IMG/VR virus record: IMGVR_UViG_3300038307_000159
Span: 1 to 38,409 of that record
Strand: one strand, 5' to 3'
DNA length: 38,409 bases
Origin: a virus
Position numbers and translations under genes: made by a program. The notes beneath the pieces were generated by a model. It was not told the DNA's origin. It ran no database searches and saw only the letters and a program-made list of their open reading frames with translations. Positions 1,357 to 31,948 of the stretch are shown here, in pieces. Numbering within the stretch: position 1 is the first letter of the stretch; every line of letters begins with the position of its first letter.

Positions 1357-1412
1357 AATTTTTATTATTAAATTGATAAGCCTTGGTTAGGGTGGGGTAA
1401 TTCACTAAGGAC

Positions 1413-1491
1413 GGCACTTATTAAAAACTCTATAAAATAGTTACATCTTAGTAGATTTTGGAGCTACAGAGATATATTTTTAATAAGCACC
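1413..1491 (-). promoter_or_regulatory. intergenic structured RNA element (15-bp closing stem)
   Basis: Bases 1477-1491 and 1413-1427 pair as a 15-bp stem in the minus-strand transcript, including two G-U wobbles. On the plus strand those two positions would be C-A mismatches, so the pairing favours the strand on which all nearby genes lie. The 49-base loop could add a CTCT/AGAG stem. No T-run follows, so it is not a simple terminator. It fills the gap between the HNH gene and the 51-aa gene. It could be an mRNA processing or stability element. Confidence 0.5.
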
Positions 1492-1503
1492 AGCTTTAAT
1501 GAA

Positions 1504-2133
1504 CTAAACCCCCTTGAGGTTCTCTACGACTGCTGATAATGGGGTAGTAAAGGCTTTTTTAAATGACCAACCTCTTCTAATTCTATCCTGTATCAAGTCA
1601 TTATTACCTCCTAATTTTTTATTTACATCAATAGCGTATTCCCCATTAAAAATAATATTATTCCTTCTATTTCGCTGTTGTTCTTTTGGTGTAGCCCACC
1701 TAATATTTCCCACCTCATAGTTTCCATTGTTATCTATTCTATCCAAGCTATGTTGAGGTGATGGTTTTCTGCCTATTGCTTTTATTAAGTCTGTTATTGA
1801 TGGTATTAAGAATTTAATTCCACGACTTCCATAATTTTTATATTTAGGGTTAGATTTATTAGTACATCTACTTTTTGCACCTGAATAACTTTCATATTCT
1901 AATGAACTTCTTAATCCGTGTTTAAGATTTAATTTAGAAGCCACTTCATTCCTATGACAACCACAACTTTTAGTATGTCCATTCTTTAGATTTCTTAGAG
2001 AAATTTCTCTCTCAGTTCCACAATCACATACACATACAAATTTTCTAGGAGGCCTGTTCTCAAATTCTAATTCTTTTATAATAGTTAATCTATTATATTT
2101 ACTCCCTTTTTTAATTATTTCTTTTTTACGCAT
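1504..2133 (-). CDS. HNH homing endonuclease with N-terminal zinc-finger-like region
   Basis: From the ATG at 2133 this is a 209-aa protein. The N-terminal third has paired cysteines (CVCDCG, then SCGCH), which suggests a small metal-binding or structural knot. The core HSLDRIDNNGNYEVGNIRW is the HNH signature of phage homing endonucleases related to the AP2-HNH group, followed by a basic QQRNRRNN stretch. The start overlaps the upstream 50-aa gene by 8 bases (ATGCGTAA), which is why I prefer it to the earlier ATG at 2154. It probably acts as a selfish mobile gene. Confidence 0.8.
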   Translation of the reverse strand: MRKKEIIKKGSKYNRLTIIKELEFENRPPRKFVCVCDCGTEREISLRNLKNGHTKSCGCHRNEVASKLNLKHGLRSSLEYESYSGAKSRCTNKSNPKYKNYGSRGIKFLIPSITDLIKAIGRKPSPQHSLDRIDNNGNYEVGNIRWATPKEQQRNRRNNIIFNGEYAIDVNKKLGGNNDLIQDRIRRGWSFKKAFTTPLSAVVENLKGV

Positions 2134-4647: not shown

Positions 4648-4682
4648 GGAATTTATGAGTTCCCCAATCTCCTCTAAACCAA

Positions 4683-4784
4683 TTATTCCCCCTCTGACAC
4701 TACCGTGTCTTCTGTTACAGGGTCTGCTTCAAGAGGCGCTTCTTCTTTTACTTCTTCTACTGCTTCGTTTGTTTCTTCTGGCAT
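4683..4784 (-). CDS. small acidic protein, leader gene of its unit (33 aa)
   Basis: It encodes a very acidic, low-complexity 33-aa product (MPEETNEAVEEVKEEAPLEA and on). It is the first reading frame after the structured leader at 4830-4904. The last codons contain five Gs followed by AATAA. A one-base slip back at that point would continue into the downstream basic frame, giving a ~95-aa acidic/basic fusion. It may be a small protein or the upstream half of a frameshift product. Confidence 0.5.
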   Translation of the reverse strand: MPEETNEAVEEVKEEAPLEADPVTEDTVVSEGE

Positions 4785-4829
4785 AATTATCTTGCAAGAT
4801 TAAATTATTAAAATATGTCAGACCTTTTT

Positions 4830-4904
4830 GGTATCCTGAACCCTCAATACTAGATTGAAGGTAATGTATACTACCCCCACCTTGCGGTGAGAGTTCAAGA
4901 TACC
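4830..4904 (-). promoter_or_regulatory. structured 5' leader beginning at the predicted transcription start
   Basis: Bases 4888-4904 and 4830-4846 form a 17-bp closing stem in the minus-strand RNA. All 17 positions pair, two as G-U wobbles that would be mismatches on the other strand. Inside is a CACC-GCAA-GGTG hairpin with a GNRA tetraloop, and a GGTA/TACC hairpin. The extended -10 promoter at 4913-4918 would start the RNA at about 4906, so this fold would be the 5' end of the transcript. No T-run follows. It is a candidate riboswitch, protein-binding leader or stability element. Confidence 0.6.
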
Positions 4905-5130: not shown

Positions 5131-5910
5131 TTAATTATGCAATCTTTCTCTATTTTCCTTAATTCGCTTTCTACCTATTTCACAATACTCAGCTTCTTGT
5201 TCAATACATATCCAGTTTCGTTTAAGGTTGTCGCAAGCCACAGCTGTTGTAAATGAGCCAGCACAATTATCCAAAACTAAATCTCCTTCGTTGGTATAAG
5301 TCTTAATTAGGTATTCCATCAGGGCTACTGGTTTTTGGGTTGGGTGAAGTTTTCCTTTCTGTGAAGCATTACTGATTTTTATTTCTTGGTCAGGGTAAAA
5401 ATCAGTGTACTCACCACCAGTAGCCTTTAGAGTCCCATATACTTGGTTTCCGTCACCTTTATATACTTTATCTCTCGGCTTATCTTTTCTTACTCTTCCT
5501 CTATCCTCCATTTGAGGTTTATATAAACATTGATTACTATAAAAAATCATTATATCTTCATATTTTCGTAAAGGTTGTTTTTTTGCATTTAAATGCCCAG
5601 TAGCTTTTACTTTATTCCACAACCAAGAATACTTAAACATCTTAGGATTACTCATCACCAAAGCACTTGTAAAGGGTTGTGAAGCTGTCAGAACTATTGC
5701 TCCGTTATCCTTGATTATCCTTTTGTATTGTTCCCATAATGGCTCAAAAGGTATTACAGTATCCCATTTGCAAGCAGTAGTTCCGTATAGTTAAGGAAGG
5801 TCTGCCAAAATCATATCAACTGATTTATCAGCGATATTTTTCATTTCAACAAGGCATTCTCCTTGTATCAATTCAAATTTTGGCAAACCTTCATTTGTTT
5901 TGTTTATCAT
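5131..5910 (-). pseudogene. N4/N6 DNA methyltransferase interrupted by an in-frame stop at its catalytic motif
   Basis: Reading from the ATG at 5910, codons 1-39 give the N-terminus of a beta-class DNA methyltransferase ending in ADLP. Codon 40 is TAA and 41 is CTA, after which the same frame resumes with YGTTACKWD. Deleting the six bases TAACTA would restore the catalytic DLPY motif. The rest is intact: HPTQKPVALMEYLI and the SAM motif VLDNCAGSFTTAV near the end. The start overlaps the HNH stop as ATGA. Either the enzyme is dead, or a fragment is made from an internal start around 5661, or the stop is bypassed. Confidence 0.75.
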
Positions 5911-6389
5911 AAATAATATTGTATTTTTAATTTCATCTTATTCCACTCGACCTGTGGAATATCTACTTTCGCTCTGTTCTCTAACCAAGATACAAACTGT
6001 AAGTTATCTAATAAAAGTGTTCCGCCATTCGCTTTTGCTTCAATATGGTCAAGCGATGGTTTAATCCATTTATTTTTTGTTTTAGTCCACTCATTAAATA
6101 AATCATTAAACTTCTTATCTTTATAGAACTTTTCAATAAACTGCTTGTATATTTCTGTGGTAAATCCTTCGTAATCTCTCTTTCTTTTTATTGAGGCATT
6201 GAGAAATTTTAATTTTTCAATATCTGTAAAACTATCTAACCATTCAAGCGACACATCATACTTCAAGTGAGCTTTCATATTCTTTAGGTTGTGGTCTCGG
6301 CTCATTTTTTTACCCTCTGACCAAACCTTTCTACCCTTACACGCTTTACTTATATTTTCTCTATGTGTTTTTGTAAATACTCTTTTCAT
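5907..6389 (-). CDS. HNH homing endonuclease inserted by a methyltransferase gene
   Basis: This 160-aa protein has an N-terminal NUMOD3-like basic segment (THRENISKACKGRKVW) and a C-terminal HNH core SLDHIEAKANGGTLLLDNL, followed by SWLENRAK. It lies between two copies of a methyltransferase N-terminus that both break straight after the codons for DLP. This suggests that those conserved codons are its target. Its stop overlaps the downstream methyltransferase start (ATGA). It is a selfish mobile gene by family. Confidence 0.82.
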   Translation of the reverse strand: MKRVFTKTHRENISKACKGRKVWSEGKKMSRDHNLKNMKAHLKYDVSLEWLDSFTDIEKLKFLNASIKRKRDYEGFTTEIYKQFIEKFYKDKKFNDLFNEWTKTKNKWIKPSLDHIEAKANGGTLLLDNLQFVSWLENRAKVDIPQVEWNKMKLKIQYYL

Positions 6390-6416
6390 ACCATAAGTCT
6401 ACCATACTACTTGCTG

Positions 6417-6509
6417 TTATGCAACTGGTAAGTCACATAAAATCATATCTATAGACTTATCTGGTATATTCTGCATTTCTTTTAAGCATTCTCCTTGAAT
6501 TAGTTTCAT
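6417..6509 (-). pseudogene. methyltransferase N-terminal fragment (second copy)
   Basis: From the ATG at 6509, 28 codons read KLIQGECLKEMQNIPDKS and onward to CDLP, followed by two unrelated codons and TAA. About 20 of 27 residues match the N-terminus of the gene starting at 5910. It ends at exactly the same point, just before the tyrosine of the DLPY motif. It looks like the 5' remnant of a methyltransferase gene split by the HNH element, or a duplicated N-terminus. Confidence 0.65.
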
Positions 6510-6523
6510 ATTATTTTATTTAG

Positions 6524-6604
6524 CGGACTGATTGAGATTTGAACTCATATCTTATAAAGTCCCAATGGGAGTTTTATATATGTTACCAGTTACACCACCA
6601 GTCC
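6524..6604 (-). tRNA. tRNA-like gene with an abnormal anticodon arm
   Basis: Several parts are standard. The 7-bp acceptor stem is GGACTGG with TCAGTCC, the D arm is GTGTAACTGGTAACAT, and the T loop GTTCAAATC has a 4-bp stem. No CCA is encoded. The anticodon arm is wrong for a normal tRNA: TATAAA/TTTATA closes a 14-base loop (ACTCCCATTGGGAC) that can itself fold as TCCC/GGGA. The total of 81 bases is about 8 too long. An anticodon cannot be assigned with confidence (CCC or TGG are readable). It could be a degenerate tRNA, a decoy, or one with a small insertion. It abuts the stop of the upstream gene. Confidence 0.6.
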
Positions 6605-10517: not shown

Positions 10518-10665
10518 AATCTTTCCCAACCTTCCTCAGAAATACCCTACGGTAATTTAGTACAAAGTGTTCACGATTATTTGTAAGGGTTCGACCCTCC
10601 AACCGCTTTGAACAATTTTTATGTAAACAAACGGTCGGGTCATCTGAGGTAGATTGGGTGGGATT
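10518..10665 (+). ncRNA. candidate structured RNA (148 nt, multibranched)
   Basis: Arms 10518-10539 and 10644-10665 pair at 19 of 22 positions. Two T-G wobbles would be mismatches on the minus strand, although one C-A would instead be a wobble there. Inside, ACCC/GGGT (10544-10547, 10637-10640) closes three hairpins: ACAAA/TTTGT (10562-10566, 10580-10584), AGGG/CCCT (10586-10589, 10595-10598) and a bulged 8-bp stem (10602-10610, 10628-10635). The layout is cloverleaf-like but does not fit a tRNA. No reading frame with coding character covers it. Confidence 0.5.
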
Positions 10666-12765: not shown

Positions 12766-13026
12766 ATGGAAAATGATATTAAAAAAAGATTTGAGAAAGA
12801 AGGTCGCTGTACTAAGTCAGTTGAAAATGGACAAGCTATTTGTGGTGTGAAACTTGATTGTCACTTACACGATTGGAGGTCAACTGAACTTGCAGACCTA
12901 CAAAAAGCAGATATAAGAAAAAAGGTGGTGGAATTGATGAAAACTTCAGATAAGTATGTACCATTTCAAAAGATACATTATCAATCAGCCTTACAAGACA
13001 TCTTAACCCTAATAGATGAAATATGA
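12766..13026 (+). CDS. unknown protein with Cys/His residues (86 aa)
   Basis: The N-terminal half has C15, C26, C32 and H34/H36 (RCTKS, ICGVKLDCHLH), a possible zinc site. The second half is helical (LADLQKADIRKKVVELM). The stop overlaps the next ATG, so it is coupled to the NinB-like gene. Probably a recombination or replication accessory, by context only. Confidence 0.6.
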   Translation: MENDIKKRFEKEGRCTKSVENGQAICGVKLDCHLHDWRSTELADLQKADIRKKVVELMKTSDKYVPFQKIHYQSALQDILTLIDEI

Positions 13027-13562
13027 TGAAAGACAAAAGTATACCAACATATAAGTCAGTAAAACTTGCAGGTAAGTTTGTAATGGTAGACGGTAAACTT
13101 ACTAAGCAATACAATTCTGAAGCTCACTTACAGCACTTCATAAACACTTACGCAAAAGCAGGAGATGACTTTTCAGAAGAATTGACCTGTAAAAGACCTA
13201 AAAGAAGTGATGCTCTGAATAACTACTACCACCTGTATTTGTCTTTGATAGCCTTATCAAGTGGACATACAATGAAAGAATTGAAAGAGTGGGCGGTAGG
13301 TAAATTCTTAACAAAAGGTATTAAAGAGGTATTTGGAGATAAGACTCGTATCACAGATAGCTCTGCTGACCTCAATATGGACGAATTTGGAGAGTTTCTG
13401 AATGAATTAGAGGAAACTACCGAGATCCCCCTACCAGACCCTAAGCCGTTCAAAATGGGGCTTCTATTGACCGAAGAAGGTAAGCTCAAACGAGAACAGA
13501 AAGAGAAGTACAGTAAAATGAAGCCAAAGGGTTTAGTTCCTGTCTGGCATCAGAATAAGTAA
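13023..13562 (+). CDS. NinB-like recombination protein
   Basis: A 179-aa protein. The order CKRPKRSDALNNYYHLYLSL, then GHTMKELKEWAVGKFL, then SSADLNMDEFGEFLNELEE and IPLPDPKPF resembles lambda NinB (Orf), a recombination mediator that binds ssDNA and can stand in for RecFOR functions. The N-terminal 45 residues are variable. Located right after the ssDNA-binding-like gene. Confidence is moderate, since the match is to overall layout. Confidence 0.6.
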   Translation: MMKDKSIPTYKSVKLAGKFVMVDGKLTKQYNSEAHLQHFINTYAKAGDDFSEELTCKRPKRSDALNNYYHLYLSLIALSSGHTMKELKEWAVGKFLTKGIKEVFGDKTRITDSSADLNMDEFGEFLNELEETTEIPLPDPKPFKMGLLLTEEGKLKREQKEKYSKMKPKGLVPVWHQNK

Positions 13563-13576
13563 TTCATTAAAACATT

Positions 13577-13648
13577 ATGAAAGGTACACTCCCATTAATA
13601 GTCGTAGCAGTAGCACTCGGTTTAATTCTTTTTGCACAATTCTTATGA
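13577..13648 (+). CDS. possible 23-aa membrane peptide
   Basis: MKGTLPLIVVAVALGLILFA is a single hydrophobic helix. Its stop overlaps the start of the following gene as ATGA, which supports translation. Function unknown. Confidence 0.42.
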   Translation: MKGTLPLIVVAVALGLILFAQFL

Positions 13649-13788
13649 AAAAGCCCCGCCCAGAAGACCTTATAGGTTACATACTCTTCGCAATAGCACT
13701 GATACTGATTGCTGTAAGTGTCTTATTTGTTGCTTTTGATTATTCTGAAAAGATGCATAATGAAGAGGTGAGACACAAACATTTATAA
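13645..13788 (+). CDS. small membrane protein (47 aa)
   Basis: KKPRPEDLIGYILFAIALIL gives a basic head and a transmembrane segment (about 10-30), followed by a charged tail (YSEKMHNEEVRHKHL). Coupled by ATGA overlap to the preceding peptide, and its stop is 3 bases before the long structured RNA. Confidence 0.52.
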   Translation: MKKPRPEDLIGYILFAIALILIAVSVLFVAFDYSEKMHNEEVRHKHL

Positions 13789-13791
13789 CAT

Positions 13792-13935
13792 TGTAGTACT
13801 TTCAAACCAGTAGTAGGTCGGTAGACCTTTGTATCCGCCAGTGCGCACAGAAGCTCGGGGACTATCAACCGTTAGGATGAAAAGCTCGAAGGATAACTGT
13901 ATCAAGCGGACGACTACTGGTTTGAGGGTATTACA
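13792..13935 (+). ncRNA. candidate structured RNA (144 nt, 23-bp closing stem)
   Basis: Arms 13792-13814 and 13913-13935 pair at all 23 positions, three of them G-U/U-G wobbles that would be mismatches on the minus strand, so the RNA is read from the plus strand. Inside are AGGTC/GACCT with a 4-base loop (13815-13828), TCCGC/GCGGA (13834-13838, 13906-13910), CAGT/ACTG (13839-13842, 13896-13899) and further possible pairs. The interior is more GC-rich than its surroundings. It is upstream of the gene at 13976. I do not recognise it as a known class. It may be a riboswitch-like leader or a free-standing phage RNA. Confidence 0.65.
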
Positions 13936-13975: not shown

Positions 13976-14155
13976 ATGATTTCCCAATGTATACTTTGTC
14001 AAAGGATATCGCACGATAATATTCTTTGGAGTGAAAAACCAGAAGGACAAGTGATCGTATCAGTCTTACTAACTAAATGTTATCCATGTAAAACAAGAGA
14101 GGAGGCGGACATTGAAACCTATAAGCATAGAGAAATGTCACTGCGGGAGGATTAA
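13976..14155 (+). CDS. zinc-finger-like protein (59 aa)
   Basis: The start at 13976 is fixed by GAAAGGAGAAATAAG directly upstream. Residues C5, C8 (CILC) and later CYPC form a four-cysteine knuckle pair. The frame is open further upstream to 13829, but that part lies in the structured RNA and has no coding look. First of five genes in a row with strong Shine-Dalgarno sites. Confidence 0.65.
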   Translation: MISQCILCQRISHDNILWSEKPEGQVIVSVLLTKCYPCKTREEADIETYKHREMSLRED

Positions 14156-14342
14156 GGCAGGCGAACACTGGGTAAGTCCACTCGACTTCATCAGAAAGAT
14201 TATACAGTTAAGAAACGAAGAGAAGATTGAGAATGTAGAGTTGATTAATTGTACCTGTCCTGAATGTACTTGCGCTCTTGAGAGAGCCGAGAGTGCATCT
14301 TATCAAGAACACAAAGAAGCACAGGTGAGGAAGCAATCATGA
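14112..14342 (+). CDS. zinc-ribbon protein with TTG start (76 aa)
   Basis: The chosen start is TTG at 14112, six bases after AGGAGG. Cysteines CHCG near residues 9-12 and CTCPECTC near 48-55 would form a zinc ribbon; the C-terminus is a charged helix. It overlaps the preceding gene by 44 bases in a different frame, and its stop overlaps the next ATG. The early in-frame ATG alternatives are lacking, which supports TTG. Confidence 0.62.
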   Translation: MKPISIEKCHCGRIKAGEHWVSPLDFIRKIIQLRNEEKIENVELINCTCPECTCALERAESASYQEHKEAQVRKQS

Positions 14343-14410
14343 TTAAAAACTTCTGTGTAATACTGGTATTAGTCTACATTTACTTTAACTTCATAAGGAG
14401 TATGCTATGA
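14339..14410 (+). CDS. 23-aa membrane peptide
   Basis: MIKNFCVILVLVYIYFNFIR is one hydrophobic helix. It is preceded by GTGAGGAAGC (Shine-Dalgarno-like) and starts and ends in ATGA-type overlaps with its neighbours. This tight packing supports real translation. Confidence 0.5.
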   Translation: MIKNFCVILVLVYIYFNFIRSML

Positions 14411-14496
14411 AAGCAATCGTTGTTTTAATAGTCTTACTTTGCATCTGTGGTATTGGTTATATTTTTGACACTAGGAAGGAGAGGAGAAAATGGTAG
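14407..14496 (+). CDS. 29-aa membrane peptide with basic tail
   Basis: A hydrophobic helix (AIVVLIVLLCICGIGYIF) followed by a basic tail (RKERRKW). ATAAGGAGTATGCT precedes the start, with AAGGAG at good distance. Could be a small holin- or antiholin-like peptide; unproven. Confidence 0.55.
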   Translation: MKAIVVLIVLLCICGIGYIFDTRKERRKW

Positions 14497-14612
14497 TCAT
14501 AATCAAAGTCATTGCGTGTTTTTATTTCTTCTTTATTGTTTATCCTTGTAGGTATCTAAACGTGATTAGAATGATAGATATGTATAAGTATAGACAAGCA
14601 GGACGCTCGTAG
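14490..14612 (+). CDS. 40-aa membrane protein
   Basis: VVIIKVIACFYFFFIVYPC is an N-terminal hydrophobic segment followed by a basic soluble tail (YKYRQAGRS). AAGGAGAGGAGAAA precedes the ATG. Last gene of the plus-strand unit before the bidirectional terminator. Confidence 0.55.
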   Translation: MVVIIKVIACFYFFFIVYPCRYLNVIRMIDMYKYRQAGRS

Positions 14613-19162: not shown

Positions 19163-22100
19163 TTATTCGACATCTTTTCTATAGTAAATTACTCCTTGTA
19201 TTAAATCGACCGTGTTAGTTTCAGCACTCGCTCCTGTGGTAAACACTATATGTGCTTTTGTTGACAATTCCGCATTACTGAATGTTGTTGTTGAAACTCC
19301 GAAATCAGTTGTGGTTTCTGTAGCGTCTATAATTGTCGTTCCTGTTGTTGTGGCTGAACCAAAAGCCCTTTCCTCTAATTGCCAATCAAGTGATGGATTT
19401 GTACCAAATACAACCGAGTCCACCTGTACTACGGTAATTGCCATATCTTTAGGAGATATCCAAATTGGTACTTCTTCATTATCCCAGCTATCATCTGCAT
19501 ATATTGTAAAGTTTGCCTGATATATGTCATGGGCAATTACACGCTCTGCTGTACCATCATACCACAGTAAAGTGCCGTCGGTTGTATCAAAACCAAACTG
19601 CCCTAATACTGTTAACACTGGGTTGGATGAATTTACAGCCTCAAATGAAGTTGCTCCCCCAAAATCAAATACTCCAGTTCCTATGTCTCCAGTGTTAAGT
19701 AAGAAAGCATCGTCTACATTCACAGTAAGTGAATCTCCTGACATTACTGTGGTTGCATTTGTACCACCAGCGATAGTTAAGGTATCTGTTGTAGTATTCG
19801 CCGCAGTTGAACCAGTATCACCTGCTACTGTAAGCCAGATGTTTTGGTCAACATCTCCACCTACACATACTCCTAAGACTGAGAAACAGCCCGCAGACAA
19901 GTCTATTCCGTTTGCAAAGGTAGAAGTAGCTGTACCGTTCACATCAAGCTCTTCTGCCGTCTCTATACCGCCTGTAAAAGTCGTAGTACCAACATTAGAA
20001 AAAGCCTGTAATCCTGTGAACGTTTGACTTGCTTCAAGTAGACACATAGTACCTGAAGCATCTGGGAATGTTAGTGTCCTTGTCGTTCCTGTGGTCACTC
20101 CTGATATTTGGAATTGTCCGACCTTAGTTATGTCTCCGTTATCTAACAACTTAAATGTATTGTCTTCAAACTCTGTAACTGAACCTGCTACACCTCCTGC
20201 AAAGATTGAAGGCTCTTGTCCTCGTAGGTCAATGGTATCAACCATTGTAAATGTTCCACCTGCTCCACCTGAGTTAGTTACGATAACTCTTGCAACAAGG
20301 AATCCTGTGCCTTTAAACTCACTAGGAATAGTATAGTTTGATGTTCTATTACTATCGTCTGTTGCTTGATTGACGTTGTTGTATGAAGCAGCGGGTAAGT
20401 TTACATACATCTTAGAAGTGGAAGCTACCTCATTTACTGAACCCCATATAACAATGTTGTATGATTTGCCAGACATTGAGACTCCATTTGCATCAAGTAT
20501 CTCTTGTGTTAAGTTTCCAACTTTTTTATACGCAGTACTACTATCATTTACTACATATAGAGAATCAGTACCCGATGTATCTATTGCTGGGAATGCGTGT
20601 GAGTGAAGCTGTAATACTGTACCTGCCGTTGTTGATATATCAAATGTGTTAGCTCCACCTGTTGGTGTTGTCGCTACACCTGCAAGCCAAGTAGCATTTT
20701 GGTTTCTAACCCATGCGTTCAAGTCTGAAAGGTGTCCTTGATTTACACTAGTAGCTAAGTGGTCATTCCATTGATGCTCTTTATAACATCCGTCAGTTGA
20801 TGCTAGTGATGCTGATGGGCATAAGAATGTACCAACTGGTATAAATTCAAAGGTTGTAGGGAAGCCAGTTAATGAGACCTCTAATTGATTTACAGTTGTG
20901 TTTTTGTAATATACATAGTTAATTTGTGGTGATGTATCTGAACCTGCTGTCAAAGCTGTTGTTGTGGCAGGTGTTGTGTCTAAGTACACAAATGTACCAT
21001 CTATTATTCCAGTTAAGTCACCACCACCTGACTTTTCCCAAGCCAGAGTTATTACTGAACCGTCTGAAGTCACCTCGATAGATGGAGACTCTACCACTGT
21101 ACCGTTATATATATTTACTACAGATGCTTCTATTCCCGCTGGGCCTTCACCATCATCAACAAAGAATGAGCCTGTGGCGCTGTCTTCACGCATAGCACCT
21201 ACATACACTGGGTCGTACGGAGCTGTTGGTCTTAGGTTTGTCAAAGCTCCTGCTGTTGTAGTAGACACATATAAATCATCTCCTACTGAAAAAGCGGAAG
21301 TGTCAACCATGTTTACATATCCGTATGTAGCGATAGTACCTGTTGCATTATTTGCTATGTTAGCAGTAGCCACACCTGAAAATCTTGCAGTTGAGATTAC
21401 GTCTGCTTTAGAAAGTGCGATTGTATTAAGTCCACCTGCATCAAAACCATTTATATAGACAACTTGTCCGTTATTAATCTGTGAACCTGAGTTATTGTAA
21501 ACTCTTGCTAAGTCTTCCTGTCCGATTTGAAGTAGAGTACTAGAGTTTGAATCTTGAAACTCCAAAACATCATCTACGTCATTATAGAATAAACTACCTG
21601 CTCTGTATGCAGGTGAGACTGTGCCTCCAAGATTAATATAATCTGATACATTTAAATGACTTGCGATTGTAGAGCTTGCCTGTGATACAAAGCCGTCTGT
21701 AAGGATCAAATCCCCCGTACCGTGCGGGTCTAAGGTTATATCTGAGTTACCTGATGATGTTGTTATAGATACACCCCCTGAACCTGCACTCAAGTCTAAT
21801 ACACCTGCGCCACTTGGTTGTAATGTTAAGTTCTCTGCACCTACTGTTGTAATATCTGTTGCTACTCCTGAGAATACCAAACCACCAGTCATCGTATCAC
21901 CTGCATTTAGTACATACACATCATCAATAGTAAGGTCTCCTGCTATACCCCCTACAACAGCACCTAAAGTACCTGAATAAGAAAGGTTAGTACCAAGAGT
22001 TAGTGATGTTGTAGCTACAGGGTCTACAAGTTCTGGTGTTGCCCCTGACGTTGTGTAATAAAGAAGAGAACTTTGAACACCTGCTGATGAGGTTGCTATT

Positions 22101-31862: not shown

Positions 31863-31872
31863 AATTTTATGT

Positions 31873-31936
31873 CCTTATGGGGTCTTGTTGAGATGAGTAT
31901 CGGTGGGGAGACTCACCCCAGCAACACCCCATAAGG
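31873..31936 (-). promoter_or_regulatory. intercistronic hairpin after the capsid gene
   Basis: Arms 31873-31890 and 31919-31936 pair in a long stem (11 bp, one mismatch, then 5-6 bp). A TGGGG/CCCCA hairpin is inside. A short alternative hairpin, ACCCC/GGGGT at 31926-31939, competes with the outer stem. No T-run follows in the transcribed direction. Likely to protect capsid mRNA or lower expression of genes beyond it. Confidence 0.58.
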
Positions 31937-31948
31937 GGTATTTAATTA

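What the first reader, a model, noticed from the sequence alone, without database searches (positions are those of the whole stretch)
13792..13935. A 144-nt structured RNA with a 23-bp perfect closing stem
All 23 positions pair, and three wobble pairs are valid only on the plus strand. The interior has at least three more stems and is GC-rich compared with its neighbours. It does not fit tRNA, and I cannot match it to a riboswitch or ribozyme class. It precedes the Shine-Dalgarno-rich small-gene cluster, so it may be its regulator or an independent phage RNA.
Basis: partly seen in the sequence, partly recalled or inferred. Interest (0 to 1): 0.75.

Follow-up and report, generated by a model that had tools for sequence, protein, structure and literature searches.

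The report
Stem-caged RNA in a Parcubacteria phage
A virus that probably infects tiny Parcubacteria carries, between two genes, a 144-letter RNA folded shut by a 23-base-pair stem; it matches no known RNA family, and its relatives carry many different RNAs built on the same plan, so it is probably one of a largely undescribed set of processed or insulating phage RNAs.

Summary
Window 13792-13935 (+) has a perfect 23-pair closing stem with three G-U pairs valid only on the plus strand. It folds at -57.2 kcal/mol (z -6.05). The longest uninterrupted stem in 40 random windows was 19 pairs. Rfam finds no family, and no sequence homologue was found by DNA search, covariance model or patterns, so covariation of this RNA could not be tested.

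The context is new. The window is a phage contig; in the genome collection its terminase matched one contig, binned in a Candidatus Parcubacteria MAG. Across 780 kb of clade DNA I found 31 intergenic long stems besides a conserved post-capsid hairpin (0 in 204 kb of five control phages). Their wobbles favour the coding strand (G-U 64, A-C 30, p=6e-4). Some stand in tandem and a few enclose tRNA-like parts. The focal RNA fits this architectural class.

Most likely it is a sense-strand RNA whose closing stem is an RNase III-type processing module, cut out of, or segmenting, the early transcript. The structure is predicted; the processing is inferred. Riboswitch-like control of the downstream genes is not supported. 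By-product: the post-capsid hairpin, a covarying RNA element in most of the clade, has no Rfam match.

The parts
13792..13814 (+). 5' strand of the 23-bp closing stem
   Evidence: fold and pair probabilities
13913..13935 (+). 3' strand of the 23-bp closing stem
   Evidence: fold and pair probabilities
13815..13828 (+). hairpin AGGUC-GGUA-GACCU stacked directly on the closing stem
   Evidence: pair probability 0.84-0.98
13834..13910 (+). second interior arm closed by UCCGC/GCGGA, with inner hairpins 13855-13889 (p 0.56-0.77) and 13865-13880 (p 0.92-0.97); remaining pairing uncertain
13645..13788 (+). upstream ORF, 47 aa, hydrophobic stretch; ends 3 nt before the RNA
13976..14155 (+). downstream ORF, 59 aa with CxxC pairs, Shine-Dalgarno outside the RNA
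13023..13562 (+). NinB/Orf-like recombination protein upstream in the same unit
   Evidence: PHROG 72, E 3e-6
10518..10665 (+). second long-stem RNA near the start of the same + unit (z about -3.9 on +); strand not certain
4830..4904 (-). 75-nt long-stem RNA of the - unit, 17 pairs, z -8.3 with flanks
1387..1517 (-). long-stem RNA of the - unit

Best explanation
A sense-strand intergenic structured RNA of the phage's short plus-strand transcription unit. Its 23-bp closing stem is a two-turn double-stranded RNA module of the kind that host RNase III cuts on both strands. Cutting would release the folded interior (about 100-140 nt) as a discrete RNA and at the same time separate the NinB-side mRNA from the small-gene mRNA, giving both new ends. 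Shown: the predicted structure and its excess over chance, the intergenic position, the recurrence of the architecture in relatives, the coding-strand bias of wobble pairs in that class, and an RNase III domain in the MAG that holds the only genome-collection relative. Inferred: that the region is transcribed through, that RNase III cuts it, and that the released RNA is stable. What the interior does after release is unknown; tRNA-like interiors of several class members make engagement of tRNA-handling machinery possible for those, but the focal interior carries no tRNA signature.
For: 23 perfect pairs, z -6.05, three wobbles valid on + only. Position between same-strand genes. In 780 kb of clade DNA, 34 intergenic stems at score 38 or more, against 0 in 204 kb of five control phages and 3 in shuffled clade DNA; 31 remain when post-capsid hairpins are removed, in 16 loci, with G-U:A-C = 64:30 on the coding strand, p=6e-4 (the scan scored G-U and A-C alike). 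Tandem sets of such RNAs in L004 and L025. The only genome-collection relative of the terminase is a contig binned in a Parcubacteria MAG; that MAG has an RNase III domain, 139.9 bits. Precedent: RNase III binds duplexes flanking 16S and 23S rRNA, and T7 R1.1 is a standard phage substrate (PMC8708148).
Against: No transcript data. No homologue of this RNA, so no covariation for it. The host link rests on one binned contig. The control set is five phages. Stem length was a search criterion, so the two-turn length in the class is not independent evidence for RNase III. Strand could be assigned automatically for 22 of the 31 stems only.
Confidence: 0.4

Rival explanations
1. The stem alone matters: a hairpin-type mRNA processing, stabilising or insulating element between genes; the branched interior is incidental and no RNA acts in trans.
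For: The clade's best conserved element, the post-capsid hairpin, is just such a simple two-helix hairpin between genes. Interiors of the class share no sequence.
Against: The focal interior has confidently predicted arms, and some interiors in relatives are tRNA-like, which is more than a spacer needs.
Confidence: 0.27
2. A tRNA-derived or tRNA-mimicking RNA with an extended acceptor stem, for example a decoy for tRNA-directed enzymes or defences.
For: Class members in relatives keep Leu-type D-arm and T-arm pieces inside long stems: L022 -19723..19910, L052 -4649..4888, L004 +891-988, T-loop UGCAAAU. The focal hairpin after the stem sits where a D arm would.
Against: No tRNA match of the focal RNA at any reported level; no T arm was recognised in it.
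Confidence: 0.11
3. A cis-regulatory leader (riboswitch, attenuator or protein-bound operator) of the small-gene cluster at 13976-14612.
For: It lies directly upstream of that cluster.
Against: Shine-Dalgarno outside the structure and not paired to it; no terminator between RNA and gene; no Rfam riboswitch; the interior stem has no evident alternative partner.
Confidence: 0.1
4. A DNA-level inverted repeat: a small transposable element, a cruciform or a replication or packaging site.
For: Nearly perfect inverted repeat of 23 bases at the ends of a 144-bp segment.
Against: Single copy in the contig; no direct repeat at the flanks by inspection; three wobbles valid on one strand only; class-wide coding-strand bias of wobbles.
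Confidence: 0.06

Closest known systems
RNase III processing duplexes around 16S and 23S rRNA in pre-rRNA
   Same: A long duplex closes a structured RNA inside a longer transcript.
   Different: The interior is a 98-nt phage RNA, not rRNA; cleavage is not shown here.
T7 RNase III sites such as R1.1
   Same: Double-stranded elements in a phage polycistronic transcript.
   Different: From memory, T7 sites are short hairpins with an internal loop; this stem closes a branched 98-nt interior.
Stem-loop annotated after the capsid gene of P22, noted there as similar in location to HK97 and lambda
   Same: Same place as the clade's post-capsid hairpin noticed here.
   Different: Not the focal RNA; the clade's element is a longer two-helix hairpin with a CCCACC loop.
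Large phage or mobile-element RNAs such as GOLLD, ROOL, HEARO (named from memory)
   Same: Structured non-coding RNAs of phages or mobile elements.
   Different: No Rfam family matches the focal RNA.

Membership tests
Any Rfam 15 family | Covariance-model score at or above the gathering threshold | tested here: not met
   best sub-threshold match 19.2 bits against a threshold of 41.2
tRNA | Cloverleaf match by ARAGORN or RF00005 | tested here: not met
RNase III-type processing stem | Uninterrupted double helix of about two turns in the transcribed strand | tested here: met
   23 pairs, (strand of transcription inferred from flanking genes)
RNase III-type processing stem | RNase III available in the host | tested here: inconclusive
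   PF14622 match in the Parcubacteria MAG that holds the only genome relative; host of this phage not proven
RNase III-type processing stem | Cleavage on both strands by RNase III | not testable with these tools
   needs in vitro cleavage or end mapping
Retron msr-msd RNA | Reverse transcriptase encoded nearby | tested here: not met
   no PF00078 match in the contig
TIGR-Tas guide RNA | Tas protein with a Nop-type domain, and a repeat array | tested here: not met
   no PF01798 match; RNA single copy. Pfam Nop may miss divergent Tas proteins
TnpB-type guide RNA | TnpB-family nuclease encoded nearby | tested here: not met
   no PF07282 match in the contig
Clade class of long-stem intergenic RNAs (defined here) | Intergenic, closing stem with strong score, fold z below -3.5 | tested here: met
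Clade class of long-stem intergenic RNAs (defined here) | Wobbles favour the coding strand | tested here: met
   focal RNA 3 G-U, 0 A-C on the + strand of its neighbouring small genes; class 64:30
Clade class of long-stem intergenic RNAs (defined here) | Compensatory changes among homologues of the focal RNA | not tested
   no homologue found

The most novel reading that the evidence does not exclude
Phages of Parcubacteria carry a fast-evolving class of 'stem-caged' RNAs, some derived from tRNAs, that are excised from operon transcripts by RNase III and act in trans as stable RNAs, for example as decoys for tRNA-directed host enzymes or defences; the focal RNA is one of them.
Probability: 0.17. 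Interest if true: 0.8.

Novelty: new variant of a known kind. Interest (0 to 1): 0.5.

Why it matters
Parcubacteria and other Patescibacteria phages have almost no described non-coding RNAs (two library papers held all of 'Patescibacteria', 'phage' and 'noncoding RNA', neither about phage-encoded structured RNAs of this sort as far as their abstracts show). A clade in which many genomes carry several long-stem RNAs, with coding-strand wobble bias and occasional tRNA-like interiors, suggests a heavy reliance on RNA processing in phages of hosts with very small genomes. It also gives direct tests: end mapping and RNase III cleavage of a few named segments.

Tried and rejected
Rfam at gathering and at E-value thresholds: nothing. 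DNA homologues in phages, plasmids, own contig and 19 relatives: none beyond chance. A single-sequence covariance model (R1), searched over the relatives and 32 whole records: only itself; such a model has little power for diverged homologues. Exact patterns of the interior in the viral collection: none. Searches by neighbouring proteins: NinB-like and the 76-aa protein gave nothing; the 196-aa protein gave two relatives (L052, L053), neither with the focal RNA. Relaxed ARAGORN with introns gave mostly noise and was not used, except that it agrees on an odd anticodon loop at 6524-6604. Retron, TIGR-Tas and TnpB readings dropped for lack of the partner protein. The 5796-5892 hairpin is inside methyltransferase gene remnants and was not counted as a class RNA. 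I first suspected the three-RNA sets in L004 and L025 to be orthologous to the focal RNA because small CxxC proteins follow both; there is no sequence support.

Full report
WHAT WAS CHECKED. The segment 13792-13935 was folded alone: -57.2 kcal/mol, z = -6.05 against 200 dinucleotide shuffles, none as stable. The closing stem pairs 13792-13814 with 13913-13935 without interruption; three pairs are wobbles on the plus strand and A-C mismatches on the minus strand. In 40 random windows of the same length and first-order composition the longest uninterrupted stem (wobbles allowed, same span limits) was 19 pairs. The interior has one confident hairpin right after the stem (13815-13828), a helix 13834-13838/13906-13910 and a hairpin 13865-13880; the middle is uncertain. 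Folding alone cannot show that the RNA is made.

WHERE IT IS. The window is a 38.4-kb IMG/VR virus record. It has a minus-strand unit with head, tail and terminase genes and another with replication and methyltransferase genes, and a short plus-strand unit (about 10.7-14.6 kb) with HNH and NinB-like genes and several tiny ORFs. The RNA lies between a 47-aa ORF and a 59-aa ORF of that plus-strand unit.

WHOSE PHAGE. The terminase has relatives at 59-76% identity over most of its length in dozens of viral contigs, none of the annotated phages is close, and in the one-genome-per-species collection the single relative is a contig binned in Candidatus Parcubacteria SURF_53. One binned viral contig is a lead, not proof, of the host. 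That MAG has an RNase III domain.

HOMOLOGUES OF THE RNA. None was found: blastn, a single-sequence covariance model over relatives and 32 whole records, exact patterns in the viral collection, blastn against all long-stem candidates of the clade. Covariation of the focal RNA is therefore untested.

THE CLASS. A scan of the relatives for long closing stems turned up many other structures. To avoid building in a strand preference I repeated it with G-U and A-C scored alike and kept intergenic cases only. At score 38 or more: 34 in 780 kb of clade DNA, 0 in 204 kb of five control phages (11b, lambda, T7, Venkman, P22), 3 in shuffled clade DNA. At lower thresholds the clade does not exceed the shuffles (at 30, 76 against 107), so only the strong stems carry the signal. 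Without the post-capsid hairpins described below 31 remain, in 16 loci; where the flanking large ORFs agree on a strand (22 cases), the coding strand has 64 G-U and 30 A-C (p = 6e-4); with the threshold at 34 it is 76 to 31 (p = 1.6e-5). Pairs in one stem are not independent, so these p-values are optimistic. The bias argues for function as RNA of the coding strand. Several stand in tandem: three in L004 (885-1182), three in L025 (14139-14491), two in L032 (17414-17584).

tRNA-LIKE MEMBERS. In L022 (-19723..19910) and L052 (-4649..4888) the long stem encloses a Leu-type D arm (GUGGCGGAAU..AACGC) and a T arm with loop UGCAAAU, and in L004 (891-988) the same T loop is followed by CCA. These were recognised by motif, not by Rfam, and have enlarged or altered anticodon and variable regions. 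The focal RNA has no such parts.

MECHANISM. A perfect two-turn helix that closes a branched RNA inside a transcript is the arrangement that RNase III resolves in pre-rRNA, and RNase III sites in phage polycistronic mRNA are established (PMC8708148). I therefore take excision or segmentation by RNase III as most likely (0.40), with a pure mRNA-processing or stabilising hairpin next (0.27). A leader that regulates the small-gene cluster is not excluded but has nothing in its favour beyond position: the Shine-Dalgarno is outside and unpaired with the RNA, and no terminator follows.

NOVELTY. No Rfam family matches, and the architecture recurs in a phage clade for which I found no description in the searched library. 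It works like known processing stems, so I call it a new variant of a known kind. The more novel reading, a class of excised trans-acting RNAs, I put at 0.17.

BY-PRODUCT. Directly after the capsid gene, 38 of 41 clade contigs have a 60-140 nt hairpin, in the typical case two helices of about ten pairs split by a small internal loop, with CCCACC in the loop. On an alignment of 21 of them 12 of 13 predicted pairs show changes on both sides with pairing kept. A model built from these (R2) finds further contigs not in the model and none of the five control phages. It has no Rfam match (for the window copy). This element is better supported than the focal RNA and would deserve its own report.

Noticed in passing
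window 31871-31938 (-), and the region after the capsid gene in 38 of 41 clade contigs: Conserved two-helix hairpin with a CCCACC loop right after the major capsid gene; 12 of 13 consensus pairs with double-sided changes, model R2 finds it across the clade and not in five control phages, no Rfam match.
   Followed up: partly
window 6524-6604 (-): tRNA-like gene (Rfam tRNA, 42.2 bits) missed by ARAGORN in its default mode; its anticodon loop appears to be 14 nt with an inner UCCC-AUU-GGGA hairpin, so it may not decode normally.
   Followed up: partly
L022 19723-19910 (-), L052 4649-4888 (-), L004 891-988 (+), L068 2506-2675 (+): tRNA-like pieces enclosed in long stems, with T loop UGCAAAU (or, in L068, the GCAAAU part) and enlarged other arms; possible non-translational tRNA relatives.
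   Followed up: partly
window 5640-5920 (-) and 6380-6500 (-): Two adenine-methyltransferase-like fragments that break off at the catalytic DLP-YG motif; in the first an in-frame TAA CTA stands between DLP and YGTTACKWD. Remnants, or something more unusual.
   Followed up: no
window 10518-10665 (+/-): Another long-stem RNA candidate (z -3.9 on +, -5.1 on -) near the start of the plus-strand unit; also overlaps a spurious-looking 97-aa ORF on the minus strand.
   Followed up: partly
L028 17833-18110 (-): Repeats of AGGTGTTCAG/CTGAACACCT around two hairpins upstream of the terminase; could be a protein-binding or packaging site.
   Followed up: no
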